Shown: positions 3,361 to 32,605 of the stretch, in pieces
Layout: every line of letters begins with the position of its first letter
How positions within the stretch are numbered: the stretch's first letter is position 1
Source: a virus
Length of the DNA stretch: 34,384 nucleotides
Virus record (IMG/VR): IMGVR_UViG_3300033148_001237
Location: 1-34,384 of that record
Strand: one strand, 5' to 3'
Notes under the pieces: generated by a model
What the model was told of the DNA's origin: nothing
The model's input: only the letters and a program-made list of their open reading frames with translations
Databases searched by the model: none
Program-made: the position numbers and the translations under genes

Positions 3361-3505
3361 AAAAGATTTTGAAAAAGAAGTTGGTAAAGCTTTGAAAAAA
3401 AGACTAGAAGAAGAATTGGATAGAAAGCCAAGTGATGATGAATACAAGTATTATATTGACAAGAATTATGAGAAATACAAATGTTCAGTAAACAAGAACA
3501 ATTAA
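3353..3505 (+). CDS. small charged protein, 50 aa
   Basis: The ORF starts at ATG 3353 inside the end of the previous gene, behind AAGGAG, and its tail overlaps the NinG-like gene start by 25 bases. The product is rich in Lys and Glu and is predicted helical (R-K-D-F-E-K-E-V-G-K-A-L-K-K-R-L-E-E-E-L). There is no known family. The strong ribosome site and interlocked overlaps favour a real gene. Confidence 0.5.
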   Translation: MNRKDFEKEVGKALKKRLEEELDRKPSDDEYKYYIDKNYEKYKCSVNKNN

Positions 3506-4065
3506 GCAAGGTCAGAGAGCCTAAGCCAAAGTATCGGAGAAAGTGTAAGACTTGCCGTATTTGGTTTAGAACAGATAGCGAAACACAAAAAGTATGCGGC
3601 AGTATAGAATGTGCTTTGTCTTATGTGAAGAAAGAGAACGAAAAGAAGCATCGACAAGAGAAAAGAGCCTTTAAAGGAAGTGATAAATCCCATCAAAGGA
3701 AAATTGCACAACAGATATTCAATAAGTTCATAAGAATAAGAGATGAAAAGCTTCCCTGCATATCGTGCAATACTCCTAAAGCCAAATGGGACGCAGGACA
3801 CTACTTTGCAGTAGGAAGCGGAAACAGTTGCCTAAGGTTTAATGTCTGGAATGTTCATAAACAATGTTATAGGTGTAACCAAGAGTTATCAGCAAACAAG
3901 GACGGATATACTCCTAATTTAAAAAAGAAAATAGGATTAGAAAGATTTGAGAGGTTAGAAGAAAATAGACATGGATCATCAAAGCATCATACACTAGAAT
4001 ATTATAAAAGAATAACTGTAATATTTAGAAAAAAGATAAAAAGGATTGAAAATAAAAGCCTTTAA
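3481..4065 (+). CDS. ninG: NinG/Rap-like recombination nuclease
   Basis: At 194 residues this is close to lambda NinG (about 204). It has an N-terminal C-x2-C...C...C zinc motif (C-K-T-C-R-I-W-F ... V-C-G-S-I-E-C) and a central block C-I-S-C-N-T, W-D-A-G-H-Y, L-R-F-N-V-W-N-V-H-K-Q-C-Y-R-C-N, then a helical C terminus. This matches the NinG (Rap) family, an HNH-like nuclease that assists phage recombination by acting on branched DNA. The presumed catalytic His lies in D-A-G-H-Y. It ends the recombination block, just before the terminase promoter. ATG 3481 lies inside the preceding small gene. Confidence 0.85.
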   Translation: MFSKQEQLSKVREPKPKYRRKCKTCRIWFRTDSETQKVCGSIECALSYVKKENEKKHRQEKRAFKGSDKSHQRKIAQQIFNKFIRIRDEKLPCISCNTPKAKWDAGHYFAVGSGNSCLRFNVWNVHKQCYRCNQELSANKDGYTPNLKKKIGLERFERLEENRHGSSKHHTLEYYKRITVIFRKKIKRIENKSL

Positions 4066-8819: not shown

Positions 8820-9024
8820 TAACAAATCGGTAGTGATAGAGAAGTTGTTTAAGGCAACTTTCTCTACGCCTAATGGCAAGAAGTGTTTGGCTCATATGAA
8901 GAAAGTCTTTGTAGACAGAGCTATAGCAAAACTAGGAATGGAGCCCTTAGAAATAGGAATAAGACAAGGTGAATGTAATGTTATAAGAAAAATCGAACAG
9001 GAGATAAACAGTGGTAGAAGTTAA
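8812..9024 (+). CDS. Bbp19-like phage protein, 70 aa
   Basis: The 70-residue product contains F-S-T-P-N-G-K-K-C-L-A-H-M-K-K-V-F-V-D and E-I-G-I-R-Q-G-E-C-N-V-I-R-K-I-E. These elements (F-x-T/S-P-x-G...L, then R-x-G...V-x-R-x-I) match the small Bbp19-type proteins found beside the portal in Bordetella phage BPP-1-like and other podoviruses. The function is unknown. A GGAGGAGAGAAGG site precedes the ATG at 8812. The HNH gene begins inside its last codons. Confidence 0.65.
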   Translation: MDNNKSVVIEKLFKATFSTPNGKKCLAHMKKVFVDRAIAKLGMEPLEIGIRQGECNVIRKIEQEINSGRS

Positions 9025-9508
9025 TAGATTAAAAGAGATTTTGTCTTATAATAAAGATTCAGGTGTATTTACATGGTTAAAAAAACCTAGTGCAAAATCA
9101 AGCAGGGTTAAAATAGGAGAGGTAGCAGGGTATGTGCAGGACTATGTCAAAATAAAAATTGACGGAAAGCAGTATAAAGCCCACAGACTAGCTTGGTTAT
9201 ATATGACAGGGTATTTTCCTAAGGAACAAATAGATCATATTAATCATATAAAAACAGATAACCGGTTTGTAAACCTAAGAGAGGTGAACAATCAAGAAAA
9301 TCATAAAAACAGAACAGTGAATAAAAATAATACTTCTGGCGTTGTTGGAGTAGGTTGGCATAAAGCTTCTAAAAAATGGTTAGCCAAAATAGGTATAGAA
9401 GGCACAGAAGTACAACTAGGCACATTTGTACTTTTTAGCGATGCAGTTAATGCAAGGAAAAATGCTGAGGTTCTATACGGATTTCACAAGAATCATGGAA
9501 AAGGATAA
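9011..9508 (+). CDS. HNH homing endonuclease with AP2-like DNA-binding domain
   Basis: The 165-residue free-standing nuclease has an HNH_3 core, A-H-R-L-A-W-L-Y-M-T-G followed by I-D-H-I-N-H-I-K-T-D-N-R-F-V-N-L-R (about residues 56-95), holding the catalytic His and the Asn of the fold. The C-terminal N-N-T-S-G-V-V-G-V-G-W-H-K-A-S-K-K-W-L-A-K-I is the typical AP2-like domain. The start is GTG 9011 with AGGAGA at seven bases, inside the end of the Bbp19-like gene. It interrupts an otherwise continuous head operon and is most simply a mobile gene. Confidence 0.9.
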   Translation: MVEVNRLKEILSYNKDSGVFTWLKKPSAKSSRVKIGEVAGYVQDYVKIKIDGKQYKAHRLAWLYMTGYFPKEQIDHINHIKTDNRFVNLREVNNQENHKNRTVNKNNTSGVVGVGWHKASKKWLAKIGIEGTEVQLGTFVLFSDAVNARKNAEVLYGFHKNHGKG

Positions 9509-13569: not shown

Positions 13570-14156
13570 ATGGCAGCAGGAACAACATCAGACATATCAT
13601 TATCATCTAATGCTTTATTGTTAATAGGTCACGATACTATAGCGAGTTTTGAAGAATCTACAGCAGGGGCAACAATAGCTTCTAACTTATAGCTTCTAAC
13701 TTATATCAATCTTCATATTACAATATGCTGACTACTTACAGATGGAGATTTGCTACAAAAAAAGTAACATTAGCACGATTAACAGCAACACCTTTAAATG
13801 ATTATACATATCAGTTCCAATTACCTACTGATCTTTTATATCTTATAGCACCTCATAATATTACTAACTATGAATTATATGAGGATAAATTATATTGTAA
13901 TGAGCCGAATGTGTCTATTGACTATACATACAAAGTAGCAGAAGATAAATTACCAGCTTATTTCATAAAAGCTTTTGAGTTCTTTTTAGCTTCTCAATTT
14001 GCTCTACCTATTACAGGAAGCTTAGAAAAGATGAGTGCAATGCAGACAGCATATATGCACCAACTTAGAATGGCAAGACACGCAGATTCTACTCAAAGAC
14101 CTGCGGATTCCTTACCAATCAATCCCTATGTGGATGTCCGATTCGGAGACTATTAG
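13570..14156 (+). CDS. tail tubular protein A (T7 gp11-like), frame broken by a 14-bp tandem duplication
   Basis: From ATG 13570 (behind AAAGGA) the frame encodes S-L-S-S-N-A-L-L-L-I-G-H-D-T-I-A-S-F and then stops at TAG (13690-13692) inside a 14-bp tandem duplication. Removing one copy joins it to the downstream frame and gives a 190-residue protein, near T7 gp11 (196). The rejoined protein reads N-L-Y-Q-S-S-Y-Y-N-M-L-T-T-Y-R-W-R-F-A-T-K-K, then L-P-T-D-L-L-Y-L-I and K-A-F-E-F-F-L-A-S-Q-F-A-L-P-I-T. That is the gatekeeper/adaptor pattern of podoviral tails, which bind under the portal. As given, the gene is split; an assembly error is most likely. Confidence 0.8.
13675..13705. repeat. 14-bp tandem duplication in tail tubular protein A gene
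   Basis: The 14-base unit TAGCTTCTAACTTA occurs twice in a row at 13676-13689 and 13690-13703, with period 14 holding from 13675 to 13705. The length shifts the frame and creates a stop; one copy fewer restores the ORF. Confidence 0.95.
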
Positions 14157-14158
14157 TT

Positions 14159-15874
14159 ATGGGTGTAGAGTTTATTCAGTCCAACATGACAGCAGGGGAG
14201 TTAGCTCCAACGCTTCACAGTAGGACAGATATAAGCAAATATGCCCATGGAGTTGCAGATGCTACTAATATGGTTATTTTGCCTCATGGTGGACTAAGAA
14301 GAAGACCAGGAATGGCTAAGATTACAGATAGTAAAATAGCATCTAAAGGCAGACTCGTTCCTTTTATATTTAGTGTTGACCAAACATATCTAGTAGTTCT
14401 TAGAGACTTAAAAGCAGATATCTATAATGATGGAGAGTTGGTATCATCAGAAACAACAACTTTTACCGAAGCACAATTATATGATGTAGATTTTGTTCAA
14501 TCAGCAGATACTATGTTATTCACACATGAACTTCACCCTACTAAAGTATTACAAAGAACAGGGTCGCATACTTCATGGTCATTTGGAGATGTAACATTTA
14601 GTAATGCTCCTGCAACATGGGGAGCAACAGATGGTTATCCTAGTTGTTGTACATTCTTTGGTGGTAGATTATACTTAGCATCATCTACAGCAAAACCGAC
14701 TACAATATGGGGAAGCGGAACAGGGCAAGACGATTATGGACTTAGTGACATACTTGATACTGACCAATACAATAAGATTGAGAGTTTATTTTCAGGTAGG
14801 GATTTGCAAGTGTTTACTGTTGGAGAAGAAATATATAATACAGCTTCTCCAATAACTCCTGCTAGTTCTGCATGGAAAAGACAAACAGGTTATGGATCAA
14901 CTAGAATAAGACCTATCTTAATCGATGGTGCTACAATGTATATAGACTCTTCAGGAAGAACAGTAAGACAATTCTTATTCGACTATACAGAAGATTCTTA
15001 TGTTTCTTTAAATGCTTCTTTATTATCTTCTCATCTAATTACAGATGTTGTAGCAATGGCTGCTATTAAAGGTACTCAATATGATGTAGGTGATTATGTT
15101 TATGTGGTAAATGCAGATGGTACTTGTGCAGTATTAAATACAATGCGACACGAAGAGATAACAGGATGGACTCATTGGGTTACTGATGGAACATTTGAAG
15201 ATGTTACAGTTATTAATAAAGAGGTATATTTTCTAGTAAAAAGAGAAGATACATATTTCATAGAACTATTAACCGAGAACACTTACACAGATCACAATGT
15301 TTTAATAGACGGAGATTACCCAGATGAGTATAATGTTATCCATTCAGGAGCTAATGTAGTAAAAGGTATTGCTAATGTAATTCATACCGACTATACATCA
15401 GGAGCAGCAGTAACTTCTATTACAACAGACTATAGCAGTGTATTCGCAAGTGTAGAGTTTAAAGTAGTAGCAGATTATAGCATAATGGATGATGATACAT
15501 ATACCGGAACAGATGAAGATAACTCTTTTACAATTACAAGAGATGCTTACAGGCTAGAGGTAGGATTAAATTATTTAACTAAAGTAACTACTTTGCCTAT
15601 AGCGACAGAAACTCGAAAAGGTACAACACTTTTTAGAAGAAAGAGAGTTGTTAAAGTAGATATAAATGTAGTAGATTCTTTAGGCATATATGCTAGAAAC
15701 AGATTAGCAGCAGATAGAGAGTTTACAGTAGTGTTAGATCGTGCTCCTGTACCATTTACAGGATTCAAAGAAATGTATCTATTAGGTTATGATAGATTAG
15801 CAGAGATAGAGGTAAGCCAAAAAGAACCTTTACCTTTTATATTAAGAAGCTTAGGCTTTGAAATTGAATACTAG
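14159..15874 (+). CDS. tail tubular protein B / nozzle (T7 gp12-like)
   Basis: The 571-residue protein has the hallmark N terminus F-I-Q-S-N-M-T-A-G-E-L-A-P-T-L-H-S-R-T-D-I-S-K-Y followed by G-L-R-R-R-P-G-M-A, shared by podoviral nozzle/stabilisation proteins. F-G-G-R-L-Y-L-A-S-S and P-T-T-I-W-G-S near residues 165-190 are also conserved. The rest is beta-rich, as expected for the hexameric tail nozzle that joins the adaptor ring to fibres. It begins three bases after the gp11-like stop. Confidence 0.9.
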   Translation: MGVEFIQSNMTAGELAPTLHSRTDISKYAHGVADATNMVILPHGGLRRRPGMAKITDSKIASKGRLVPFIFSVDQTYLVVLRDLKADIYNDGELVSSETTTFTEAQLYDVDFVQSADTMLFTHELHPTKVLQRTGSHTSWSFGDVTFSNAPATWGATDGYPSCCTFFGGRLYLASSTAKPTTIWGSGTGQDDYGLSDILDTDQYNKIESLFSGRDLQVFTVGEEIYNTASPITPASSAWKRQTGYGSTRIRPILIDGATMYIDSSGRTVRQFLFDYTEDSYVSLNASLLSSHLITDVVAMAAIKGTQYDVGDYVYVVNADGTCAVLNTMRHEEITGWTHWVTDGTFEDVTVINKEVYFLVKREDTYFIELLTENTYTDHNVLIDGDYPDEYNVIHSGANVVKGIANVIHTDYTSGAAVTSITTDYSSVFASVEFKVVADYSIMDDDTYTGTDEDNSFTITRDAYRLEVGLNYLTKVTTLPIATETRKGTTLFRRKRVVKVDINVVDSLGIYARNRLAADREFTVVLDRAPVPFTGFKEMYLLGYDRLAEIEVSQKEPLPFILRSLGFEIEY

Positions 15875-15882
15875 GAGATAAT

Positions 15883-16317
15883 ATGTGGTTCATGATAGCA
15901 GCAGCAGCACTTAGTGCAAAACAACAAGCAGACGCAGGAACAGTAAGCAAGTTAGGCTATAAAGCACAAGCAGCAACAAGAAGAGTACAAGGACAACAAT
16001 CGGTAAGTGCAGCAAAGATGACTAATATGAAATTAACTAGACAATATAATGATATACAAGCATCAAATGCAGTAATGGGTGCAGCGAGTGGAAGAAGTTT
16101 TAGTAGTGCAACAGTTCAAAACATGATGAGAGCAGACAAAGAAAGACTTAATTGGGATATCGAATATTCTACACTATCTGGAAAGATAGGCAAAACAGGG
16201 GCAGAAGCGGATGTTACCGGATATACTTCGGCAGGACAACAAGCACAAGCAACAGGTTTTCAAAAAGGCTTATTGAGTCTTGGTCAATCTTATGCTCAAT
16301 ACAAGCAAGTAGGATAA
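15883..16317 (+). CDS. internal virion (ejection) protein, gp14-like
   Basis: The 144-residue protein starts M-W-F-M-I-A-A-A-A-L-S-A and continues as an Ala/Gln/Lys-rich helix with Q-Y-N-D-I-Q-A-S-N-A-V-M-G-A-A-S-G-R-S-F-S-S, a pattern of T7 gp14-like internal core proteins. It would be packed inside the head and ejected first to make an outer-membrane pore. It is followed four bases later by the next ejection protein. AGGAGA precedes the ATG. Confidence 0.75.
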   Translation: MWFMIAAAALSAKQQADAGTVSKLGYKAQAATRRVQGQQSVSAAKMTNMKLTRQYNDIQASNAVMGAASGRSFSSATVQNMMRADKERLNWDIEYSTLSGKIGKTGAEADVTGYTSAGQQAQATGFQKGLLSLGQSYAQYKQVG

Positions 16318-16320
16318 AAG

Positions 16321-18342
16321 ATGGAAAGATACAAATCAGCTAATTTACAACAAGCACAAATCTCAGCTCCTTCAGGTGCTCTTGCATCTGCACAAGAATC
16401 TATAAGAGGATTTGAGAGTTTAAGTTCTAAACTAAATCAGTTTACAAGTATGGCTATGAATCAATACGCAGCTCAGAGAATGGGAGAAGCCAAAGAACAA
16501 GCAGCAAGAGATGATGCAATAGGGAAGCCTTATCATAAAGAATCTGTATATACAATGTACGGAAAAGCTTATAACAACACAAGGTCAGCTACCTTTGCAG
16601 CAAATGCAGAGATAGATTTAACTACAAAATCAACACAACTAGCAGAAACATATAAGAATGACCCTGATGGATATACAAACGCTATGGGAAGCTATAAAGA
16701 CAAATTAGCTCTTGATGCACCAACTCCTGAACTTGGGAGTGTTATTTCTATCACAGGAAGAAAAATACAGAATCACCAATTCGGAAAACTAAGTATTGCT
16801 AAAGCGGAAGAGATTAATAATCAAAAGATTGGAACTTTAGATACTTATGTTAACTTACAGATAACAAGAGCAATAAACGCACAATCAATAGGTAACACAA
16901 AAGACTTAGACCTTATAACAGAAACAACACTAGACTATGTTGATAGCATGGTTAAAGAAGGTGTAATACCTCAATCTACCGCTGACAATCTTATTAAGAC
17001 AACAAAGTATAAAGTAGATAAAGGCTCTAAAGAAGCGATACTTAGGGATTTAATAGAGGCTAAAAAGTTTGACGAAGCTAGAGAAATGGTTGAAAGCTTC
17101 GGTGATGAGATAGGAGAACAATATACAGTAACACAATTTGATGCAATTAACAGATCATTAACTACTATTTATAATGGTGGAGTCAAAGCTAACACCTCAG
17201 CAACAAAAAAAGTAACAAAAGAAGCTGATAAGTTAGCAAAAAATCAAATTAAAATGAAGCAGCATGGAGTAACATCAGACGAGGCTACAATTTCTGAGGA
17301 AACAAAAGCTAATCTAAGCCCTGAAGTAACAAAACTTGTAGAGATACAAGAAAAAACAGATGCTTTTATGTTGCAATTTGCAGACTTAACACAACTAGAA
17401 AAAGAAGAAACGCTAAGATCAGCAATAAATACTGCAGAGTTTACTTCTTTAAGTATAGAAGTACAAAAAGCTATTAAAGAAAATATCAAAGCAACTAATA
17501 ATGGGTATAAAAATGACCCTATGTCACAAGGATTTGCAGAAGGCAGCTATGCATTAGACGAAACAATCTATTATGGAATGGAAGGATTTACAGAAGCATT
17601 AGATGATAGAGATTTTTACAAAGATATTAATGTTGATAATGCAGGTATAGGGGCAAATAAGCTACTTACTAAAGGCGAAGAACAATCGTTTATAGATACT
17701 CTTCAAGGTGCTGATGAAACAGCAAAATTAGGAATGCTTCAAGAAATTAGTTCACTACCTAAAGAACAAGCAGAACTCATCTATAAACAACTAGATAAAA
17801 AAGGTGCTGATATTTATATAGCTTCTGGTAGATTATTAACACAAAATCAACCTCATGTGGCAAGAGTTTTAATGTTTGGAGCAACTGCTGATGTAAAATT
17901 AGAAACAGAAACAAAAGCTACAAACTATACTAACCTATCTACAATACTACAAGGACATGATGTAGATACTATTAATACAATGACTACTATGGCAACCAAC
18001 TACAATAAGGGAGCAATAGGAATGACAGGCTCTATAGTTTCAAGCAAGGAAGCAATAGAAGCGGTATATGGTAAAATCAAAGGATATAATGGTAGAGATA
18101 CTTTTATTCCCGTAGGAGTCAACGAGGGAACATTTAACGCATGGTTATCAGGATACATTGTATCAGGAGATAGTGCCTTGACAGAAGAAATACAATCTTT
18201 AAATAATGCTTGGTTTGATGGAGATATACAGCTAGTATGGGAAGAAGATGGAAAATATAGTTTAAAGGATTCAAGTAACGGACTTACTTATATGGATGAA
18301 GAAGGTTCGCCTATTATCTTAGATTATTACAGGAGCAAATAA
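16321..18342 (+). CDS. internal virion (ejection) protein, gp15-like, 673 aa
   Basis: This is a long, mostly helical, soluble protein with a Gln/Ala-rich N terminus and Lys/Glu-rich central helices (about residues 280-390). Its size, its place between the gp14-like and larger ejection proteins, and its TAATG overlap with the next gene fit T7 gp15 (747 residues), part of the trans-envelope ejection tube. No enzymatic motif is visible. Sequence similarity to named families cannot be shown by eye, so the call rests on order and build. Confidence 0.65.
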   Translation: MERYKSANLQQAQISAPSGALASAQESIRGFESLSSKLNQFTSMAMNQYAAQRMGEAKEQAARDDAIGKPYHKESVYTMYGKAYNNTRSATFAANAEIDLTTKSTQLAETYKNDPDGYTNAMGSYKDKLALDAPTPELGSVISITGRKIQNHQFGKLSIAKAEEINNQKIGTLDTYVNLQITRAINAQSIGNTKDLDLITETTLDYVDSMVKEGVIPQSTADNLIKTTKYKVDKGSKEAILRDLIEAKKFDEAREMVESFGDEIGEQYTVTQFDAINRSLTTIYNGGVKANTSATKKVTKEADKLAKNQIKMKQHGVTSDEATISEETKANLSPEVTKLVEIQEKTDAFMLQFADLTQLEKEETLRSAINTAEFTSLSIEVQKAIKENIKATNNGYKNDPMSQGFAEGSYALDETIYYGMEGFTEALDDRDFYKDINVDNAGIGANKLLTKGEEQSFIDTLQGADETAKLGMLQEISSLPKEQAELIYKQLDKKGADIYIASGRLLTQNQPHVARVLMFGATADVKLETETKATNYTNLSTILQGHDVDTINTMTTMATNYNKGAIGMTGSIVSSKEAIEAVYGKIKGYNGRDTFIPVGVNEGTFNAWLSGYIVSGDSALTEEIQSLNNAWFDGDIQLVWEEDGKYSLKDSSNGLTYMDEEGSPIILDYYRSK

Positions 18343-20627
18343 TGATTAATCACGATTTTACTCCTGGTCAAACAAGTAAGCAAAAAGCAGGGAAGTACGA
18401 AGAATCAACTTTACAAGCATTAAAAGAAGGTTTTTTATATGCTGATGCAACAAGAGATTATGATATGCAAGACACTAGAGCTAATAATGATGTATTTCAG
18501 GCACAAGACAACTATAAACAGTTTCAAGTAGAGTATGATGCTTATGCTAAAGAACAACCTGCAACAAAAGCAAATTATAAAGAATGGATAGACAAAGGTT
18601 TTATCAGACTAACGGATCACGACACAGTAGAATGGTCAACTTTCGTACCCTTAGTACAAGGAAGAGAAGAAGCACTAAAAGGTGCTATTTACGCATACGG
18701 ACTAAAAGATGATATAGATAACAAGTTTGCTACGAATGTTCAGGGTGATATGGATAAATACATGAACAAACAATATAGCACATTTGGAACTGCTGCTAAT
18801 ATGATAGGCCACATGGGTCAGTGGGCAACAGAACCAGGATCAATTATTGAGATGATGACTCCTGGTGTTGTTAGAGGTAAAACGCTAATGCAGAATGTAG
18901 CAAAAGCATTTGGTTATGAGTTTGCAGCAGGTTTAGTAGGGGAAAGTTTTAAACAGTTTCAGACTTTTGGTGTTGTAGCACTTAAAAAAAGAGCAAAACT
19001 AGATGGATATTATAAAGAAGCTTTTGCAGAAATAGGATTAAACTCTATCGGTGCAGGAGTTCTTAGAGCAGCAGGTAGTGCTACAGTAGATAAAGCAATT
19101 ATGAGAACAATTAAAAACAAACCTAAGAACAAAGGCAAAAATATAGATGTTATATTTGCTAGATACAATCAGCGTATGCAGTCAAAATTAATTAGAAGTG
19201 AAGATATGCACAGAACAACACTTAATCAAGTAGATGACCAACTCAACAACGGAAAGCCTGTAGAAATTCAAACAGATATAGATATCAATACAAAAACTTC
19301 ACCCGAAGTAAAAGCTGTAGATTTAGCAGAACAACAACAAAATCTTTACATTAAAAGCGGTGATATGGAACAAGAGAATATCATTAACAAAGCTACTGAT
19401 GAGGTAACTGAAAAGCCTGAGAATGTAGATTTATTTGTTGAGAAGTATAAAGAAGGGGAAGAACTTTTTAGTGATGATGAGATATTACAAAATCTAAGGA
19501 AACAAGAATCAGAACTAAGTCCGTTAAGTCCTGAACAAGAGATAGAAGCGATGGAAGAAGTTATACCAAAGCCCCAAGGCTTTCAGGCTCAGGAAATGAT
19601 GATAGGTGCTGAAACAATTAAAAAAACTGATTTTAATTTAATTCAAGCAAGAATGAAAACAAGAGAATTTAATAGAAAGAATCCCGACAAAAAAAGAACA
19701 ATACCAAAAGCACAAGAAGATGCTTATAAAAGACATGAAAATATAGCAGATGAATTGCTTGAAATGGATTTTATAGCAGGAGGCACAGGGCAACCAATAT
19801 TTGCTAAATTTGCAGATAATTTAGCAGCAGGAACAGTTGCAGGTATTGAAGAGGATGAGCAAGGCAATATCTCGTTTAATCCTGAGAAGTTTGTACTAGG
19901 ACTAGGTGGATATACAGCAGCTAAAGCTATGTTTAAAGCAGGAGCATTTGATACTTTACCTCAAGAACTTAACGCACAAGTTAAAAAGTATTTTGGTGTA
20001 GAGTTAGAGCCTAGTATAGTAGGTAGTGATCCTAGAGCAATAATATCAAAACCTAGAAAAGGATGGACAAAAGAACGAATAGAAAAAGAATTAAAATCAG
20101 CCTTAATGTGGGCTAAAGATACTAATAGAGAATATCGACGAGCACTAGCAGAATTTTCTACAGATACAGAATTAGAAAATCATATTTTTTATCATGGTAC
20201 AGGCGGAGGTGGAGAAAGTAAATTAAAACCATCTGTAGCATTATCTAAAAAAGCATTTAGAGGAGGTGGATATGATGAGGATTATTATGGTATCTCTTTA
20301 TCTTCTAGTAGAAATAAAGCCTCTAATTTTACAGGAGAATCTAGTAGCGGTACAGTATTTCCTGTAATATTAAGCAAAAATGCAAAAATAATAGAAAGAC
20401 CTGACCTAGAAGATGCTTTAGATATTGAGGATTATATAGAGACTTTTTGGACAGAGGGAATAGATGCTGTAAAAATAGGAGACTGGTCGGATCCACATTC
20501 AGAGCAGGAAATAGTAATTTTAAATCCTAGAAGTATCACAGTAGGAAAAGGTACACGTTTTCAAGTATTCAAAAAGGAAAGATTTGAAAATCTTACAATA
20601 GAAGCTATAAAAGAGGAGAATAATTAA
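18342..20627 (+). CDS. internal virion protein with C-terminal ADP-ribosyltransferase-like domain, 761 aa
   Basis: The N-terminal 230 residues include G-H-M-G-Q-W-A-T-E-P-G-S and amphipathic segments typical of ejection proteins. The middle (about residues 290-430) is charged and low in structure. The last 150 residues look like a compact enzyme: Y617-H618-G-T-G near the start, Y-Y-G-I-S-L-S-S-S-R-N-K-A (648-660), then G-I-D-A-V-K-I and S-E721-Q-E723-I-V-I-L-N-P-R-S-I. A Y-H-G-T start, a central G-x-S-L-S...A segment and a terminal E-x-E strand followed by N-P...I are features of the ADP-ribosyltransferase fold found in phage polyvalent proteins. If active, it would enter the cell with the DNA and modify a host target. 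Overlaps both neighbours by one base. Confidence 0.7.
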   Translation: MINHDFTPGQTSKQKAGKYEESTLQALKEGFLYADATRDYDMQDTRANNDVFQAQDNYKQFQVEYDAYAKEQPATKANYKEWIDKGFIRLTDHDTVEWSTFVPLVQGREEALKGAIYAYGLKDDIDNKFATNVQGDMDKYMNKQYSTFGTAANMIGHMGQWATEPGSIIEMMTPGVVRGKTLMQNVAKAFGYEFAAGLVGESFKQFQTFGVVALKKRAKLDGYYKEAFAEIGLNSIGAGVLRAAGSATVDKAIMRTIKNKPKNKGKNIDVIFARYNQRMQSKLIRSEDMHRTTLNQVDDQLNNGKPVEIQTDIDINTKTSPEVKAVDLAEQQQNLYIKSGDMEQENIINKATDEVTEKPENVDLFVEKYKEGEELFSDDEILQNLRKQESELSPLSPEQEIEAMEEVIPKPQGFQAQEMMIGAETIKKTDFNLIQARMKTREFNRKNPDKKRTIPKAQEDAYKRHENIADELLEMDFIAGGTGQPIFAKFADNLAAGTVAGIEEDEQGNISFNPEKFVLGLGGYTAAKAMFKAGAFDTLPQELNAQVKKYFGVELEPSIVGSDPRAIISKPRKGWTKERIEKELKSALMWAKDTNREYRRALAEFSTDTELENHIFYHGTGGGGESKLKPSVALSKKAFRGGGYDEDYYGISLSSSRNKASNFTGESSSGTVFPVILSKNAKIIERPDLEDALDIEDYIETFWTEGIDAVKIGDWSDPHSEQEIVILNPRSITVGKGTRFQVFKKERFENLTIEAIKEENN

Positions 20628-23125
20628 TGGGATCACTATTAAGCAAATTAGCAAAAGATACAATAGTAAAGACTACTCCTGAATCTTTAAAAGGTGGGAT
20701 AGCAGGAAGAACTTTAAAACTAGCACCTGATGCAATACCTACAAAACTAAAAGATATCGACATAGATATTGCTGCAACTAAACAGAAATTAGGTAGAGCC
20801 AAACAAACTACTAAAACAAAGTTTGAACAATTAGAAGCGGCACAAATAGAAGTAGAACAGAAAATAGATATCCAAGAAGAAATACCTGACTTAACAGCCA
20901 TTAATACTCAGCAAGAAATGGATTTGGCAATAAAGAGGTCAGAAGTTCAAAGAGATATTGCATTAAGAATTAACGAACTAGAGATGGAAAAAAGAGCTAC
21001 AGAAATAGTAGGACAAGGTAAAGCAAAGGGTTTATCTACTTACGACTCTTTATATAATATGGTAAGCGAGAAAGCAGGTTCAGGCGAAGTTTTCTCTAAT
21101 CAAGAAGCGAGAGGTAAAGCAATCTATACAAGAGTGTCTGCTAATATGACAGATTTGAAAGATGCCCTTAGAACTAAATGGGCAGGACTTACACAAGATA
21201 TCGAAATGGGTCATGATGTAATTAGGTATTTAAAAGATAATAACTTAAAGAATAAAGATGCTGTAAAATATGGTAAAGAGTGGACAGCAGGAGCTAATCA
21301 AATGACGGGGCTAAGAAATAAAGCAGGAGGAAAAGTTCATAGCTTGGAAGATTGGGTAATTCCTCAAACTCATAATAAGTTTAATCTTAGAAAAGCAGGA
21401 CTGAACGAATGGAAGAAGTTTATACGCCCTCTATTAGATGTGGAGAGAATGGAGAAACAAATAGGAAAACCTGTTGATGAGATATTAGATAATGCTTTTG
21501 TATCTCTTACATCACCTGAAGTTAAGAATAGTTCATTTAGTGCTAACATGGCGAAGAGGCATCAAGAGAGAAGAGTTATACATTACAAAGACGGCGATAG
21601 CATTATTAACTACAACAAAGAGTTTGGCAATCCTGATGTGTTTGGTACTATGGATAATTATTTAAGAAGTCAGTCACAAGAGATAGCTGCTATGCAATTA
21701 TTTGGAGCAAACCCTGATAAGCTGTTTAATAAGATGAAAGACTTAGCCAGAGCTGATGGCATGGGTAATTGGCAAGAAAACAAATTAGATGCTTTATGGG
21801 ATATCGTTTTAGGTGAAGCTGATGGGGATAATATAGTTAACACAGCAGATAAAATAATCGCAACCATTGGTGGAGGCCATAGAGTCTTACAGACAGGGGC
21901 AAAACTTGGATCAGCACAAATTTCAGCTATTGCAGATGTAGGAAATATATATTTAGGAGCAGGATACAGAGGACTCAACGGGTTTAAAATAATGGGTACA
22001 GGACTAGAAACGCTTACGCAAGAAGCTTTAGGAGGTACTAAAATTGGTAACAATACAGACTTCGCTTCAAGATTAGGAATAGTTAGCGAGTTTGCAAGTG
22101 CCTCTTTAGCAAATAGCAAATATGCAGAAGCTACACAAACAGGAGGTCTAGCAAAGACAAGTGAAGCGGTATTAAGAGCATCAGGATTAGGTTCATGGAC
22201 TAACTCATTAAGAGCAGGTTTCGGCTTAGAATTAAATAGTAGATTCTTTCAAGATTTTAATATGAAGTTTGATGACCTAAGTTATAATAATATGTTTACT
22301 GAATATGGTATCACAGCCAAAGATTGGGACAAAATTAGATCAACAAAAGGTAGAGAAATAAAATCTGATTCTTTTTCAGCAGACTTCTTAGATATGGAAG
22401 CAGTTTATAAAATAGATGAAGAACTAGGATATAAACTGTCTGAACTTATATCAACAGAGATGGATGCTTTTGTCATTATGCCAACTGCAAGAACAAGAGT
22501 ATATACAACAGCCGGAAAGAAAAAAGGCACTCTTTCAGGAGAGTTGATGAGAAATGTAACTCTTTTTAAATCCTTTCCTATTTCTGTAATGCAGATGCAC
22601 GCTGCAAGATGGGCAAAAATGACAGGTGGCGGTAAAGCAGCATATACAGCAGGAGCGGTAACAAGTAGTGTAATGTTTGGTGGAGTTGCACTAATGGCTT
22701 ATGATGTTGTTACAGGCAAGACCCCGAGAAGTATTGACAGAAAAGAATTCCCTTACGAAGCCTTAGTAAAAGGCGGGGGCATGGGTATCTTCGAGGACTT
22801 GTTTAATATGGGTACTGTTAATAGATACGGACATGGATGGTTAGGAACTTTAGTAGGTGTGCCTTATGGAACTCTTGAAGATATCAGTGGAATTGTATCA
22901 GATGTCAATAATGAGTTAAGAGGAGAGGACAGGAATGTTATGGCTAATGCTTATAATAGAGCAAAGCGATATATACCTGGTCAAAACTTATGGTACACGA
23001 GAACACTCTTTTCAGAAACTTTGGGAGATTTTATGCAAGAAGCTATAGACCCGAAGTATTATCAGAAGGAAATGAGAAAGATGAAATACATGAAACAACG
23101 GGATCAAGAGTACCTATTTAGGTAA
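20627..23125 (+). CDS. large internal virion (ejection) protein, 832 aa
   Basis: The 832-residue protein has a coiled-coil N-terminal region (about residues 45-130, rich in Gln/Glu/Lys) and a helical middle. Its C-terminal half contains L-F-K-S-F-P-I-S-V-M-Q-M-H-A-A-R-W-A-K-M and hydrophobic G-A-V-T-S-S-V-M-F-G-G-V-A-L-M-A-Y-D-V-V. Membrane-prone segments of this type and the F-K-S-F-P-x-x-x-M-x-x-H motif recur in large podoviral ejection/DNA-injection proteins that occupy the gp16 position. A lytic transglycosylase motif, as in T7 gp16, is not seen. It is the last ejection gene, followed by an inserted nuclease. Confidence 0.75.
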   Translation: MGSLLSKLAKDTIVKTTPESLKGGIAGRTLKLAPDAIPTKLKDIDIDIAATKQKLGRAKQTTKTKFEQLEAAQIEVEQKIDIQEEIPDLTAINTQQEMDLAIKRSEVQRDIALRINELEMEKRATEIVGQGKAKGLSTYDSLYNMVSEKAGSGEVFSNQEARGKAIYTRVSANMTDLKDALRTKWAGLTQDIEMGHDVIRYLKDNNLKNKDAVKYGKEWTAGANQMTGLRNKAGGKVHSLEDWVIPQTHNKFNLRKAGLNEWKKFIRPLLDVERMEKQIGKPVDEILDNAFVSLTSPEVKNSSFSANMAKRHQERRVIHYKDGDSIINYNKEFGNPDVFGTMDNYLRSQSQEIAAMQLFGANPDKLFNKMKDLARADGMGNWQENKLDALWDIVLGEADGDNIVNTADKIIATIGGGHRVLQTGAKLGSAQISAIADVGNIYLGAGYRGLNGFKIMGTGLETLTQEALGGTKIGNNTDFASRLGIVSEFASASLANSKYAEATQTGGLAKTSEAVLRASGLGSWTNSLRAGFGLELNSRFFQDFNMKFDDLSYNNMFTEYGITAKDWDKIRSTKGREIKSDSFSADFLDMEAVYKIDEELGYKLSELISTEMDAFVIMPTARTRVYTTAGKKKGTLSGELMRNVTLFKSFPISVMQMHAARWAKMTGGGKAAYTAGAVTSSVMFGGVALMAYDVVTGKTPRSIDRKEFPYEALVKGGGMGIFEDLFNMGTVNRYGHGWLGTLVGVPYGTLEDISGIVSDVNNELRGEDRNVMANAYNRAKRYIPGQNLWYTRTLFSETLGDFMQEAIDPKYYQKEMRKMKYMKQRDQEYLFR

Positions 23126-23156: not shown

Positions 23157-23630
23157 ATGGACATAGAATATAGGCATAGGAAAAATAGTATTGTCAATAT
23201 TATTTATAGTAATCAAAAAAAACAAGCTAGAGAAAGAAATATGGCAGTTCCTACATATACAAAGAAAGAGCTGAGAGATTGGCTATATGGACAGCCGTTA
23301 TTTCATGTTCTTTATGACAATTACAAAAGGCTAGATTTTCAATCTAAATACAAACCTTCGGTAGACAGAAAGAGTAATAAATTAAGCTATACGATGGACA
23401 ATATCCAACTAATGACTTGGGGAGAAAATCGAGCAAAAGACAATGAAGAAAAGAAGATATACAAAAGAAAGGCTGTATGTCAATATACAAAGGCAGGAAT
23501 ATTTGTGGCAGAATACATAAGTATAAAAGAAGCAACAAGCATTACTAAAATACATCAAATAAGTAGGTGTTGCTTAGGCGAGAGAAGAACAGCAGGTGGA
23601 TACACTTGGAAATTTAAAAAGGAACAATAG
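23157..23630 (+). CDS. putative homing endonuclease with NUMOD1-like tail, 157 aa
   Basis: The central segment, Y-K-P-S-V-D-R-K-S-N-K-L-S-Y-T-M-D-N-I-Q-L-M-T-W-G-E-N-R-A-K (about residues 62-90), has the D-R...Y-x-x-x-N-x-x-x-x...N-x-x-K pattern of phage HNH-like homing nucleases. The C terminus, K-A-V-C-Q-Y-T-K-A-G-I-F-V-A-E-Y-I-S-I-K-E-A-T, is like the NUMOD1/intron-encoded nuclease repeat, a small DNA-binding helix-turn-helix. It sits between the last ejection gene and the tail fibre and appears to have its own -10 box and AAAGGA site, as expected of a mobile gene. Confidence 0.75.
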   Translation: MDIEYRHRKNSIVNIIYSNQKKQARERNMAVPTYTKKELRDWLYGQPLFHVLYDNYKRLDFQSKYKPSVDRKSNKLSYTMDNIQLMTWGENRAKDNEEKKIYKRKAVCQYTKAGIFVAEYISIKEATSITKIHQISRCCLGERRTAGGYTWKFKKEQ

Positions 23631-23631
23631 T

Positions 23632-25779
23632 ATGGGATTTAACACGACAAGCAACAGAATCGAGTACACTGCATCAGCAGCACAGACAGTATTTCCATTT
23701 ACATTTAAAATATACAGTGATACCGACATCATTGGATATTTGACACCTGATGGAGAAACAGCAAATGATTCGGAAGATTTACTTATAATAACGACAGATT
23801 ATACAGTATCTATAGACGGAGACAGTGGGGGAACTTTTACTTTAACTTCAGGTGCAACAGAGGGAGACAAGATAACTATCCTAAGAAGCTTACCAGTAGC
23901 TAGAGATACAGATTATCAAACAAATGGTGACTTGTTAGCAGAAACACTAAACAACGATCAGAACTATCAAACTTACATGGTTGCTGATGTAGCAGGTAGT
24001 GCGGACAGATATTTAAGATTTCCTGGTTCAGCACAAGGTATTTCTAATGATCTTCCTACTCCTGAAGGCGATGATTATATTAGATGGAACTCAGAAGGAA
24101 CAGCGTTAATTAATGATACTACTATTCCTGATGCAGTACAAATCGCGATAGATAAAGCAGCAGAGGCTCTAGCAAGTGCAGAGGCAGCAGCTACATCAGC
24201 AACTAATGCAGGTACAAGTGAAGATAATGCTGAATTATTAAAATGGGAAGCTGAGGCTTTTACACTAACTGCAGATAGTTATGCTACAGAAGCTGAGGAT
24301 ACACTAGTAAATATAGTTACATCTGATGGAGATGGTACATTTACTTATACTCCTACAAGTCCTGCAGAGTATTCAGCTTTACATTGGGCTGCAAAAAGTG
24401 AGGGATTTGCAGGTAGTGCTATATGGGGTAATATTACAGGTACTCTAGCTAATCAAACAGACTTGCAAGATGCTTTAAACGCTAAACAAGTTGTATTAGT
24501 AAGTGGTACAAATATAAAAACTATTAATAGTACAAGTATTTTAGGGAGTGGTAACTTATTGGTACAAGCAGTATTAGTTAGTGGATCAAATATTAAGACT
24601 ATTAACAGCACAACATTATTAGGTAGTGGAGATATTGCGATATCATCTGTTCCTCCACTACTTCCGATAAGTGATTTATTAGCAGGTATATTAACCGTAA
24701 GTCCAATAGAAGATATAGTTAGTTCAGATAATCCTTTTGGAGACGGAGATTTAATTTCTAAATACCAATTAGAATCAGATGGTACTGATACAGTAGGTGC
24801 TTTTAATGCTACACTAACTAATGTTACCTTTACGGAAGCTGTATATGGAAATGGTGCTGTTTATAGTGGAAACTCTTATATATCAACACTTGCAACAAAT
24901 ATAAAAACAATCACATTACGACATTATTTAAATTCGGGAACACAAGATACAAACCCTTATGTATTAGATGGTAGATATTCTGTTGATAATGGTACTTATT
25001 TTTATATTCAGTCAGCTACTAATAAATTATTTTTTGGTGGCTGTACAGTAAGAGTTAATAAGGTAGATGCAGTAAGTGGAACAACTACTATTGAGAGAGA
25101 TACTTGGAATATGTTTAAAGTAGAATTTACAACAGCTACAACAGGTACTAGATTTGGTTCTAATTATACAGCGGCAGTTGATTCTTTTACTGAGGGAAAG
25201 CAAGACCAAATAGAGCTTTATAATAGAGTTTTAACTTCCACAGAAGAAGAGGATTTATGGTATCAACAAGCAACAAGAGATGATAATCTTTTATCTATCG
25301 CAAATGGAGTATTAGGTTACTCAAAAGGCTATGATGCTAACGGTGCTGTAAATAGTATAGAAGAATTATCAGGTACTATTGCACCTACTAATGATTGGGC
25401 AGAGGGTATAAACTATGTTAAGAAAACTAAGGGTGGTGTATATACGAGTACATTAATTGAGCCTATTTTTGGAGAAACTTCCGCAACTGCTGATTATTTT
25501 CTAAATGGTAAATGGTATGACAAAGATGATGTATTATACACAACAGAAATATCATACCTACAAGATGAAGATGGTAAAGGTGGAATTGAAGCAGATAGTT
25601 CAGGTTATCCATTAACTTTACATTTAACTGATTATCCATCTATAACTACCGATAAGATTAAAGCTAAGGTTATAGATGCTAATCAAATTATTAGTAATGA
25701 ATTGCCGACAGCAGACCCCCTGTTAGATGGTTATTTTTGGAATGACAGTAATACTATAAAATTAAGTGTAGGAGCATAA
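23632..25779 (+). CDS. tail fibre protein with T7-type N-terminal domain and LamG-like domain
   Basis: This is the 715-residue receptor-binding fibre. Residues 1-125 match the podoviral tail-fibre anchor (Y-T-A-S-A-A-Q-T-V-F-P-F-T-F-K-I, D-Y-T-V-S-I-D-G-D-S-G-G-T-F-T-L, G-D-K-I-T-I-L-R-S-L-P-V-A-R) that binds the nozzle. An Ala-rich coiled coil follows (about residues 165-210). Two repeats with N-I-K-T-I-N-S-T-x-x-L-G-S-G come next (about 289-340), then a concanavalin/LamG-like domain (about 385-545) for sugar binding, and a C-terminal beta-rich end. ATG 23632 has AAAAAGGA; an upstream in-frame TTG at 23596 lies in the nuclease gene. Confidence 0.88.
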   Translation: MGFNTTSNRIEYTASAAQTVFPFTFKIYSDTDIIGYLTPDGETANDSEDLLIITTDYTVSIDGDSGGTFTLTSGATEGDKITILRSLPVARDTDYQTNGDLLAETLNNDQNYQTYMVADVAGSADRYLRFPGSAQGISNDLPTPEGDDYIRWNSEGTALINDTTIPDAVQIAIDKAAEALASAEAAATSATNAGTSEDNAELLKWEAEAFTLTADSYATEAEDTLVNIVTSDGDGTFTYTPTSPAEYSALHWAAKSEGFAGSAIWGNITGTLANQTDLQDALNAKQVVLVSGTNIKTINSTSILGSGNLLVQAVLVSGSNIKTINSTTLLGSGDIAISSVPPLLPISDLLAGILTVSPIEDIVSSDNPFGDGDLISKYQLESDGTDTVGAFNATLTNVTFTEAVYGNGAVYSGNSYISTLATNIKTITLRHYLNSGTQDTNPYVLDGRYSVDNGTYFYIQSATNKLFFGGCTVRVNKVDAVSGTTTIERDTWNMFKVEFTTATTGTRFGSNYTAAVDSFTEGKQDQIELYNRVLTSTEEEDLWYQQATRDDNLLSIANGVLGYSKGYDANGAVNSIEELSGTIAPTNDWAEGINYVKKTKGGVYTSTLIEPIFGETSATADYFLNGKWYDKDDVLYTTEISYLQDEDGKGGIEADSSGYPLTLHLTDYPSITTDKIKAKVIDANQIISNELPTADPLLDGYFWNDSNTIKLSVGA
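24493..24648 (+). repeat. two imperfect 78-bp repeats in the tail fibre gene
   Basis: Units beginning GTATTAGT at 24493 and 24571 encode similar 26-residue shaft repeats (L-V-S-G-x-N-I-K-T-I-N-S-T-x-x-L-G-S-G). They keep the frame and are typical of trimeric fibre shafts. Confidence 0.8.
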
Positions 25780-29668: not shown

Positions 29669-30421
29669 ATGAAAAAGCATAGTTTTACAGACGAACAATT
29701 ATTAAACTTAATTAATAATACTATCTCAACAAAAACAAATCATAAGCCTAATGAGTTTACGGGCGGTAATATTCAAATTACAAGCACCAATAATCATCAG
29801 CTTATAAAGTATAGGGTAGGATTATATTTTGGATATAAAGGAAAACACCCAATAATAAAAACAATAGATATTAAAGAAGATTTAGTATCTATTTGGACTA
29901 ATGCAATATTATTAAAAATAAAATCTTTACAAAGTAGCAATAATGGTATGTGTTATAGTGAACTTAATGAGCTAATGAATACGCCCTGTAATGATATAGA
30001 TATAGATATAGTATATAATAATATAGATATAGGGGTAAATGTGGATACAGGGGATACCCCCGTACCACCCCTGATACTTAAAAACTTATCTGAAATAGAT
30101 GCAGAATTTATAGCAGAATATTTAAAAAGTAAAATACTATCTTTCAAGCCTAATGCAAAACCTAAAATTAGTGGGTGGGTAGCAGACATAGAAAAAGCAA
30201 TAAGAATAGATGGAAGAACCAAACAACAACTAATTAATTGTATTGATTGGATTTATAATACAGAGAAAGGTAATTTTTGGATACCTAATATTATGAGTGG
30301 AAATAAATTAAGAGAAAAATTTGATACTCTTGAAATACAATCACTAAATGGAAAAGAAGCAAATACCCAAAAAATGCACAATTTCATAGACCAACTATGT
30401 GAAGCACAAGGAGTATCATAA
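29669..30421 (+). CDS. replication initiator-like protein, 250 aa
   Basis: The C-terminal part (about residues 165-227) reads K-I-S-G-W-V-A-D-I-E-K-A-I-R-I-D-G-R-T, then I-D-W-I-Y-N-T-E-K-G-N-F-W-I-P-N-I-M-S-G-N-K-L-R-E-K-F-D-T-L. The W-x-x-D-I...D-G-R...F-W-x-x-N-I-x-S-x-x-K-L-R-x-K-F order is typical of phage replisome organiser (lambda O/DnaD-like) proteins. The N-terminal half would bind the origin. The middle encodes a low-complexity D-I-D-I-D-I stretch from an AT-rich repeat that may itself be the origin, as in lambda O. It overlaps the next gene by one base. Confidence 0.7.
   Translation: MKKHSFTDEQLLNLINNTISTKTNHKPNEFTGGNIQITSTNNHQLIKYRVGLYFGYKGKHPIIKTIDIKEDLVSIWTNAILLKIKSLQSSNNGMCYSELNELMNTPCNDIDIDIVYNNIDIGVNVDTGDTPVPPLILKNLSEIDAEFIAEYLKSKILSFKPNAKPKISGWVADIEKAIRIDGRTKQQLINCIDWIYNTEKGNFWIPNIMSGNKLREKFDTLEIQSLNGKEANTQKMHNFIDQLCEAQGVS
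29991..30061. other. candidate replication origin inside the initiator gene
   Basis: Three successive GATATA units and further TATA/ATAT steps run through 29993-30031. GGGG (30050-30053), ATA and CCCC (30057-30060), a tight GC hairpin, follow. AT-rich repeats beside a GC hairpin inside an O-like gene mimic the lambdoid origin layout. Confidence 0.4.
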
Positions 30422-30985: not shown

Positions 30986-31759
30986 ATGAAAAATGTTGCG
31001 ATGTGGTCGGGAGGATATGATAGTTCTTGTATGGTAGTCTTGATCTTGGAAAAGAAGCTACCTTTAGATTATATAGTTTTTTGTGATACTCTTGCAGAGT
31101 TTAGCGAAATGTACGAATACATAGATAAATTTCAAGCATATATTAAAAGAAGATTTGGAAAAACTATCACAATAATTACACCTAATAAGAGTTTTGAGGA
31201 ATGGGCATTTACAGAGATAACAAGAGGAGAAAGAGAGGGAGAGGTAAGAGGATTGCCACTAACTACTGTTCCCTGCTATTGGAAAAGAGAATCAAAAGTA
31301 TATCCATTTGAAAGATGGTTGAAAGATAACAATATCGAAGACCATAAACTATATATCGGATATACTTATACAGAAAAACAGCGGTCACAAGTTGATGCAG
31401 CCAATCAACTTTATCCGCTAATTGATTATAAGATGACTGAAAATGATGTGAGAGATTTTTTAAAAGAGCGTTCAATAGATAATCCGCTGTACAAACATTT
31501 TAATAGGACAGGTTGTTATTTTTGTCCTAAGCAGAGGGTGGACGATTTTTATAATGTATATAAATACCACTCAGAGAAATGGAAGAAAATAGTCGAATAT
31601 GAAGAAAAAGCAAAAAAAATGAAAGCATTAAATATACAATTTAGCATTCACGGAAGTGCGAGAGAAATGGAACAAATGTTTATACAAAAAGAAAAACAAC
31701 TATCATTTGAATTTCCAGATCAACACAATGAAGAAGAATATTGTTTTTGCAAGATATAA
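30986..31759 (+). CDS. PP-loop ATPase / PAPS reductase-like protein, 257 aa
   Basis: The N terminus has the PP-loop M-W-S-G-G-Y-D-S-S (residues 6-14), which binds ATP and activates a substrate by adenylation. Y-I-V-F-C-D-T-L-A-E-F follows as the second strand, and R-G-L-P-L-T-T-V-P-C-Y-W-K-R with a C-terminal G-C177-Y-F-C180-P-K-Q are like the Cys motifs of phage PAPS reductase-family proteins and their DndC relatives. Cys at both sites may bind a metal or iron-sulfur cluster. In phages it is thought to act in nucleotide or DNA modification, not sulfate assimilation; the substrate is unknown. Confidence 0.85.
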   Translation: MKNVAMWSGGYDSSCMVVLILEKKLPLDYIVFCDTLAEFSEMYEYIDKFQAYIKRRFGKTITIITPNKSFEEWAFTEITRGEREGEVRGLPLTTVPCYWKRESKVYPFERWLKDNNIEDHKLYIGYTYTEKQRSQVDAANQLYPLIDYKMTENDVRDFLKERSIDNPLYKHFNRTGCYFCPKQRVDDFYNVYKYHSEKWKKIVEYEEKAKKMKALNIQFSIHGSAREMEQMFIQKEKQLSFEFPDQHNEEEYCFCKI

Positions 31760-31775: not shown

Positions 31776-31985
31776 ATGGCAAAAAGAAAAACAAAAGAAC
31801 CTGAAATAATAGAATTTAATTGCATTGACTGTTTATCAGAATTTCAGTATCAAAGTATGAGTATCTGCTCGTTAAGATTAAAAGATATTAGTTTATTAGA
31901 TGGGATTGAAGAACCGCCGCCAAGTAGTATTTGTGCAGGTATTAAATTTTGCACTAGATTTAAAGATAAAAGGAAAAAGAAATGA
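31776..31985 (+). CDS. small Cys-rich protein, 69 aa
   Basis: Residues 16-60 contain C-I-D-C, C-S-L-R, C-A-G and C-T-R in a spacing that could bind zinc or a cluster. Both ends are basic (A-K-R-K-T-K and R-F-K-D-K-R-K-K-K). It sits between the PP-loop protein and the methyltransferase-like protein, with AAAAGGAG before the ATG, and overlaps the latter by four bases, so all three are co-translated. It might be a partner of either enzyme. Confidence 0.6.
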   Translation: MAKRKTKEPEIIEFNCIDCLSEFQYQSMSICSLRLKDISLLDGIEEPPPSSICAGIKFCTRFKDKRKKK

Positions 31986-32605
31986 ATAAAAAAATAATTT
32001 TGCACTTGTGTGCAGATTTGGGAAGCGATAGCAGATATTACCAACTAGATGATGACTATGAAGTAATAAAAATAGGTCAAGAGATAGGTGTTGAAAACTA
32101 CACGCCACCTAAAAATGTATATGGAGTTATTGCTAATCCACCTTGTACAGAATTTAGCACAGCGATATGCTTTACTCACAGAGGAGATATTGAAAAAGGT
32201 ATGGAATTAGTAAATCATTGTTTTAGGATAATAGAAGAATGTAATCCTAATTTTTGGGTTATGGAAAATCCTGCAAGAGGAAGATTAGGAGAGCAAATAG
32301 GAAAACCAAAAGCAACATATCAACCTTGGCAATATGGGAGTCCTTGGACTAAGCAAACAGCATTATGGGGAAATTTTAATATGCCAAAAAAAGCATATAA
32401 AAAGTGGGAAGAAGTGCCAAATAAAATAAATTCATTATGGATTAGAAAAGGAAGAACTAAACCTGCATTAGTATATCTTCATAAATCTGCAATAAATTTA
32501 ATACCTGAGTTTGAGTTTGCGAGAGAGCATATAAAATGTGATGCGGATATAAGATCTATGTGCAACCAAGGATTTGCAAAAGCTTTTTATGAAGCAAATA
32601 GATAA
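31982..32605 (+). CDS. short cytosine-C5 methyltransferase-like protein, 207 aa
   Basis: The Rossmann-like N terminus L-H-L-C-A-D-L-G-S-D-S (residues 7-17) stands for motif I. V-I-A-N-P-P-C55-T-E-F-S is motif IV with the catalytic Cys, and W-V-M-E95-N-P-A-R-G is motif VI. The protein ends soon after, without the usual target-recognition domain or motifs IX-X, so it is about half the size of a full C5 methyltransferase. Short forms like this are common in phages; whether they methylate DNA, or another substrate, is open. It follows the PP-loop and Cys-rich genes in one operon. Confidence 0.75.
   Translation: MNKKIILHLCADLGSDSRYYQLDDDYEVIKIGQEIGVENYTPPKNVYGVIANPPCTEFSTAICFTHRGDIEKGMELVNHCFRIIEECNPNFWVMENPARGRLGEQIGKPKATYQPWQYGSPWTKQTALWGNFNMPKKAYKKWEEVPNKINSLWIRKGRTKPALVYLHKSAINLIPEFEFAREHIKCDADIRSMCNQGFAKAFYEANR

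What the first reader, a model, noticed from the sequence alone, without database searches (positions are those of the whole stretch)
18342..20627. Ejection protein carrying an ADP-ribosyltransferase-like domain
The last 150 residues of this internal virion protein show Y617-H618-G-T, a Y-x-G-I-S-L-S-S...A segment and an E721-Q-E723 strand followed by N-P-R-S-I, the order expected of an ADP-ribosyltransferase as in phage polyvalent proteins. If real, the enzyme would be injected with the genome and act before any gene is expressed, similar in idea to T4 Alt but in a T7-like ejection machine. This would be an early host-takeover or anti-defence factor.
Basis: partly seen in the sequence, partly recalled or inferred. 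Interest (0 to 1): 0.65.

Follow-up and report, generated by a model that had tools for sequence, protein, structure and literature searches.

The report
Swappable ADP-ribosyltransferase on podophage ejection protein
A short-tailed phage carries, at the end of one of the proteins probably packed in its head for DNA injection, a domain of a known phage enzyme family predicted to ADP-ribosylate host proteins, at a position where sister phages carry different enzymes.

Summary
The 761-aa ORF exists and the motifs lie where stated. The curated Pfam model sees the domain only weakly (PF18760 ART-PolyVal, E 0.094). A profile built from 108 phage and prophage ART-PolyVal domains (window excluded) matches residues 613-732 along the whole domain: single-test E 1.4e-8, 0 of 20,000 shuffles as good. 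hhalign gives 96%, E 4.8e-9. AlphaFold2 with a family alignment gives an ART fold of moderate confidence; its PDB neighbours are cholix/diphtheria-type toxins, PARPs and RES/ParT toxins. H618 is near-invariant (105/106); D708 is the conserved acid (99/105), not E723. Deviations: S652 replaces an aromatic residue, S731 a Gln.

Synteny places the gene among T7-type internal virion proteins. In sister phages the first ~560 residues are homologous, but what follows differs: ParB-C-like, the same plus GNAT, PBECR5 nuclease plus LysM, or LysM plus glucosaminidase. Homology to the nearest sister stops abruptly after an 83%-identical stretch. The C-terminus is thus an exchangeable cargo slot, as in polyvalent proteins. 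Precedents: ART on N4-type vRNAP, T4 Alt, an ART-like region in cyanophage A-4L gp27. Ejection, activity and target are untested.

The parts
18342..20627 (+). 761-aa putative internal virion (ejection) protein, 'protein C', with C-terminal ART-PolyVal-family domain
   Evidence: synteny with sister phages L005, L007, L012
18342..20021 (+). conserved core, residues 1-560, shared with sister phages
   Evidence: 38-39% identity to L005/L007 over residues 12/38-560; homology stops at 560
19791..19952 (+). Gly-rich motif (residues 484-537, ...DNLAAGTVAGIEEDEQGNISFNPEKFVLGLGGYTAAKA...), also found in Helicobacter prophage polyvalent proteins next to ART-PolyVal
20178..20537 (+). ART-PolyVal-family ADP-ribosyltransferase domain, residues 613-732 (extent of the profile match)
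20193..20195 (+). codon of H618, strand-1 His of the Y-H-G-T motif, His in 105/106 relatives
20295..20297 (+). codon of S652, in the column where relatives have Tyr/Phe/Trp/His
20463..20465 (+). codon of D708, the near-invariant acid (99/105) of the G-Y-D-G motif
20502..20510 (+). codons of E721-Q722-E723, candidate alternative catalytic acid; column of E723 is Glu in 16/101
15883..16317 (+). putative internal virion protein A
   Evidence: phrog_418 'internal virion protein', weak, E 0.021
16321..18342 (+). putative internal virion protein B, conserved in all sister phages
20627..23125 (+). virion structural protein D (phrog_684), homologous to virion proteins of Vibrio phages VP2/VP5/phiVC8
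13725..15874 (+). two tail proteins (tail tubular type; phrog_394 and phrog_376)
23596..25779 (+). tail fibre protein
   Evidence: phrog_1640 tail protein, E 2.3e-20

Best explanation
The gene encodes one of a set of internal virion (ejection) proteins of a podophage with a T7-type virion module. Its first ~560 residues are the conserved, structural part. Residues 613-732 are an ART-PolyVal-family ADP-ribosyltransferase domain carried as exchangeable C-terminal cargo. Most likely the protein is packed in the capsid, leaves with or ahead of the genome, and places the ART domain in the host envelope or cytoplasm, where it uses NAD+ to modify a host macromolecule before or while the first phage genes are read, helping takeover or blunting a defence. 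Shown by computation: membership of ART-PolyVal by profile, the fold at moderate confidence, position among virion genes, and swapping of the C-terminal domain among sister phages. Inferred: packaging, ejection, cytoplasmic delivery, enzymatic activity and target.
For: Profile match over the whole domain, E 1.4e-8, 0 of 20,000 shuffles; hhalign 96%, E 4.8e-9, against 0.1% for an unrelated sister domain run the same way. H618, G619, T620, G650, A660, G706 and D708 fit the family columns. AF2 model (pLDDT 68.7, pTM 0.64) finds RES, tankyrase, cholix, exotoxin A, ParT and diphtheria toxin in the PDB and ART-PolyVal proteins among viral models. Gene order of a T7-type virion module. Sister phages replace the domain by other effector-type or entry enzymes after residue ~560.
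Against: Pfam score below the gathering cut-off (13.9 versus 31.2 bits). No close homologue of this ART was found. S652 and S731 deviate from conserved columns. The AF2 alignment was made of ARTs, so the model is not independent, and the single-sequence model failed. Foldseek and VIA scores are moderate (best E 2.7e-3; Z up to 7.2). The role as ejection protein rests on gene order; only protein A has a weak 'internal virion' hit.
Confidence: 0.68

Rival explanations
1. Degenerate ART: the domain has the ART fold and ancestry but no transferase activity, serving as a binding or structural module of the ejection protein.
For: S652 replaces the aromatic residue found in nearly all relatives, Q722 and S731 also deviate, and the domain is very divergent.
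Against: H618 and D708 are kept and E721/E723 are available; R-S-E ARTs have Ser at the second triad position (established knowledge). Sister cargo at the same slot consists largely of enzymes.
Confidence: 0.22
2. The gene product is not ejected: the C-terminal domain acts inside the capsid or during late infection in the producing cell, for example on packaging or against superinfecting phages.
For: Encoded with late genes and nothing here shows ejection. Iyer et al. 2022 raise a similar option, ARTs acting on processes that target the packaging apparatus (PMC9503650).
Against: Position among T7-type internal virion proteins; sister proteins with a LysM-glucosaminidase at the same place, which fits cell-wall passage during entry.
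Confidence: 0.08
3. Not an ART: an unrelated fold with a chance run of similar motifs.
For: Curated Pfam score below threshold; no close homologue.
Against: Whole-domain profile match with 0 of 20,000 shuffles, hhalign E 4.8e-9, conserved residues in register, and nearly all structural neighbours are ARTs.
Confidence: 0.04

Closest known systems
ART-PolyVal (PF18760; Tox-ART-HYD2 clade) in phage polyvalent proteins, including the N4-type vRNAP of Roseovarius Plymouth podovirus 1 (Iyer et al. 2017, PMC5512222)
   Same: Whole-domain profile similarity, Y-H-G-T and G-x-D motifs, encoded among virion genes, company of GNAT and PBECR domains in related proteins
   Different: Carried on a 761-aa T7-type ejection-protein core rather than a giant polyvalent protein or vRNAP; Ser at the strand-2 aromatic position; very divergent
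T4 Alt
   Same: Idea of an ART packed in the virion and injected with DNA
   Different: Alt is of the R-S-E clade and a separate head protein of a myophage; here His in strand 1 and fusion to a podophage ejection protein
Cyanophage A-4L gp27 / A4 pre-ejectosome (PDB 9k3a)
   Same: Podophage ejection protein; the window's ART model aligns to chain 9k3a_B (Z 6.1, 130 residues), and gp27 has an ART-like stretch YHGT...GTYFS..SQAAS from residue 1423
   Different: Match of gp27 to the ART profile is partial (hhalign 53%, 46 columns); that gp27 is the 9k3a_B chain is my reading from size and fold, not checked by name; the rest of the protein is unrelated in sequence
T7 gp14/gp15/gp16 ejection proteins; VP2/VP5/phiVC8 virion proteins
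   Same: Gene order (tail tubular proteins, internal virion proteins, tail fibre); the downstream neighbour is homologous to the VP2/VP5/phiVC8 virion protein
   Different: No sequence match of proteins B and D to solved ejection proteins; protein C has no PHROG family; in T7 the enzyme domain is an N-terminal transglycosylase of gp16, here enzymes are C-terminal and variable

Membership tests
ART-PolyVal (PF18760) | Score above Pfam's curated cut-off (31.2 bits) | tested here: inconclusive
   13.9 bits, E 0.094, the only Pfam family listed for the domain; below the cut-off, but a broader profile of the same family is significant
ART-PolyVal (PF18760) | Profile similarity over the whole domain | tested here: met
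   Model positions 28-152 of 166, E 1.4e-8, 0 of 20,000 shuffles; hhalign 96%, E 4.8e-9
ART-PolyVal (PF18760) | His in strand 1 (Y-H-G-T) | tested here: met
   H618; His in 105/106 relatives
ART-PolyVal (PF18760) | Tyr (aromatic) in strand 2 | tested here: not met
   S652; relatives Tyr 51, Phe 26, Trp 15, His 11 of 107. Already variable within the family, so read as a divergent member of doubtful activity rather than a non-member
ART-PolyVal (PF18760) | Asp in strand 5 | tested here: inconclusive
   D708 fits the near-invariant Asp column (99/105); that this is the Asp meant by Iyer et al. is my reading
ART superfamily fold | Predicted fold resembles solved ARTs | tested here: met
   moderate scores, and the AF2 alignment consisted of ARTs
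T4 Alt / R-S-E clade | Arg in strand 1 | tested here: not met
   His at that position
T7-type internal virion (ejection) protein | Position between tail tubular and tail fibre genes among internal virion proteins | tested here: met
T7-type internal virion (ejection) protein | Sequence similarity to a known ejection protein | tested here: inconclusive
   No match of protein C in PHROGs or PDB; weak phrog_418 hit for protein A only
T7-type internal virion (ejection) protein | Present in the capsid and ejected into the cell | not testable with these tools
   Needs virion proteomics and infection assays

The most novel reading that the evidence does not exclude
In this lineage of T7-type podophages one ejection protein is a polymorphic delivery platform: a conserved core ending in a Gly-rich motif, followed by a recombining slot that holds host-attack or entry enzymes (ART, GNAT, PBECR nuclease, ParB-C-like domain, cell-wall hydrolase), so that each phage sends a different early effector through the DNA-ejection channel. 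The window's ART would work with a His-Ser-acid active site.
Probability: 0.45. Interest if true: 0.7.

Novelty: new variant of a known kind. Interest (0 to 1): 0.52.

Why it matters
Virion-delivered ADP-ribosyltransferases are known or predicted mainly from myophages, N4-type RNA polymerases and giant polyvalent proteins; only about 3% of podoviruses were reported to encode any ART (PMC9503650). An ART attached to a T7-type internal virion protein, in a slot that sister phages fill with other enzymes, would make the ejection machine itself a route for early effectors. It would give a compact system in which delivery can be tested by removing a C-terminal domain without touching the channel-forming part.

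Tried and rejected
Whole-protein Pfam, PHROGs and NCBIfam scans gave nothing useful. Single-sequence AF2 of residues 589-761 failed (pLDDT 35.8). Searches for close homologues of the ART in IMG/VR, phages, plasmids and 298 genomes of one phylum (that of a Helicobacter genome) found none or only chance-level pieces. The idea that the ITIYR..GDWVT domain of L005/L007 is also an ART was tested with hhalign and not supported (0.1%); PHROGs names it 'ParB C-terminal'. The Gly-rich motif has no relevant match among solved structures. Proteins B and D have no sequence match to solved ejection proteins. A first four-sequence MAFFT alignment misplaced strand 2 and was superseded by profile alignments. 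Base composition does not set the C-terminus apart.

Full report
What was claimed and what is there. Its stop overlaps the start of the next gene, and the G+C content of the C-terminal part (0.33) equals that of the window, so composition shows no recent import.

Is it an ART? Scanned whole, the protein hits nothing meaningful in Pfam or PHROGs. Scanned alone, the C-terminal 157 residues hit one Pfam family only, ART-PolyVal, at E 0.094, below the curated cut-off. A direct PDB sequence search gives only a chance-level diphtheria toxin match. I therefore collected real ART-PolyVal domains: Helicobacter prophage polyvalent proteins, genomes found with PF18760 and 80 IMG/VR loci. A profile of 108 of them, without the window, matches residues 613-732 over model positions 28-152 of 166 with a single-test E of 1.4e-8; none of 20,000 shuffles of the same residues reached its score. 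hhalign of the single window sequence against a 33-row alignment gives 96% and 4.8e-9. The same kind of test on the unrelated C-terminal domain of sister phages gives 0.1%.

Active site. In the family alignment the window keeps Y617, H618 (His in 105/106), G619, T620, G650, A660, G706 and D708 (Asp in 99/105). It deviates at S652, where 103 of 107 relatives have Tyr, Phe, Trp or His, and at S731 (Gln in 94/100). E723 lies in a column that is Glu in 16/101; E721-Q-E723 before I-V-I-L recalls the E-x-E of other ART clades, but that is inference. According to Iyer et al. 2017 the family triad is His, Tyr, Asp (PMC5512222). Here it would be His-Ser-Asp/Glu. Ser occupies the second triad position in R-S-E ARTs (established knowledge), so this is not proof of inactivity.

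Fold. AlphaFold2 on the single sequence failed. With 59 ART-PolyVal relatives in the alignment it gave pLDDT 68.7 and pTM 0.64, with core strands mostly in the 70s and 80s. This model is not independent of the homology claim. Its PDB neighbours by Foldseek are overwhelmingly ARTs: RES toxin, tankyrases, cholix, exotoxin A, ParT, diphtheria toxin. VIA-align gives Z up to 7.2 (cholix, 145 residues, 5.5 A), and nearly all rows shown are ART-superfamily proteins. Many of the best viral models are annotated ART-PolyVal or are large phage proteins. The scores are moderate; the consistency of the list carries more weight than any single row.

Context. The module reads terminase, head-tail adaptor, capsid, tail tubular proteins, three proteins including this one, a further virion protein (20627-23125, phrog_684, homologous to virion proteins of VP2/VP5/phiVC8) and a tail fibre. 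This is the T7 arrangement of internal virion proteins. The identification as an ejection protein rests on this order; protein A has only a weak 'internal virion protein' hit (E 0.021). The replication genes are not T7-like (DnaD-like loader, NinG) and no RNA polymerase was identified among the proteins scanned, so early transcription may depend on host RNA polymerase; this is inference.

The C-terminus is a cargo slot. Sister phages found through the tail protein and the Gly-rich motif share the core: blastp E 3e-109 to L007, 7e-93 to L005 and 8e-43 to L024 for the part up to the motif. After residue ~560 they differ. L005 has a phrog_2579 'ParB C-terminal' domain (E 2.8e-36). L007 has that domain plus a GNAT-type acetyltransferase (Pfam only 0.0024, below cut-off; 1.5e-32 to a PHROG of unknown function). 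L012 has LysM and glucosaminidase (8e-19). L018 has a PBECR5 nuclease (1.1e-11) and LysM, cut by the contig end. L024 has an unassigned tail of about 150 residues. Against L005 the window is 83% identical over the 35 residues after GLGGYT and then shows no similarity, the signature of domain exchange. The Gly-rich motif itself recurs in Helicobacter prophage polyvalent proteins, often soon after an ART-PolyVal domain. Its role is unknown; I suspect membrane or virion association.

Precedents and novelty. Iyer et al. (2017) described ARTs in polyvalent proteins and on an N4-type vRNAP, with GNAT and PBECR partners, and predicted injection. Iyer et al. (2022) stress packaging of ARTs into heads and their rarity in podoviruses. 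The fold search also returned the cyanophage A4 pre-ejectosome structure (9k3a, Z 6.1). The 1717-aa A-4L gp27, which I take to be that chain, carries SLYHGT...GTYFSKSSQAAS from residue 1423. That match is partial, and the A4 paper (cited) could not be read here. So an ART on an injected protein of a short-tailed phage is not new as an idea. What is new is this carrier protein, this very divergent ART and the swapping of cargo on an orthologous ejection-protein core.

Verdict. The ART-PolyVal interpretation is well supported as homology, moderately as activity, and untested as biology.

Noticed in passing
window 30986-31759, 31982-32605, 3481-4065, 29669-30421: PAPS reductase, DNA methyltransferase, NinG/Rap nuclease and DnaD-like helicase loader genes: a T7-type virion module combined with non-T7 replication genes, and no RNA polymerase identified among the proteins scanned.
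   Followed up: no
window 9011-9508 and 23157-23630: HNH-type endonuclease (phrog_99, E 4.2e-64) and endonuclease VII/HNH-like gene (phrog_1035, E 8.3e-12) sitting inside the structural module, the second between the virion protein and the tail fibre; probably homing endonucleases.
   Followed up: no
window 23596-25779: The tail fibre ORF as listed starts with GTG about 12 codons upstream of where all sister phages align; the true start is probably later.
   Followed up: no
window 14159-15874 versus L011-L015: The nozzle-type tail protein of five sister phages is about 80 residues longer, with the extra segment near window residue 151: an inserted or lost domain.
   Followed up: no
L150 20116-25269 (Anabaena phage A-4L gp27): Residues from about 1423 carry an ART-like YHGT...GTYFS stretch; the A4 pre-ejectosome structure aligns to the window's ART model.
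   Followed up: partly
L029, L028, L083, L144 and other Helicobacter prophage-type loci: The Gly-rich motif G.v.G..aG.E.DE.GN..f.P..F.lG..GG of the ejection protein recurs in giant polyvalent proteins, typically within tens of residues downstream of ART-PolyVal. A shared targeting element is possible.
   Followed up: partly
L005 13034-15445 and L007 14216-16675: The C-terminal ITIYR..GDWVT..YA..HG domain (phrog_2579 'ParB C-terminal') has no known function here and is unrelated to ART by hhalign.
   Followed up: partly
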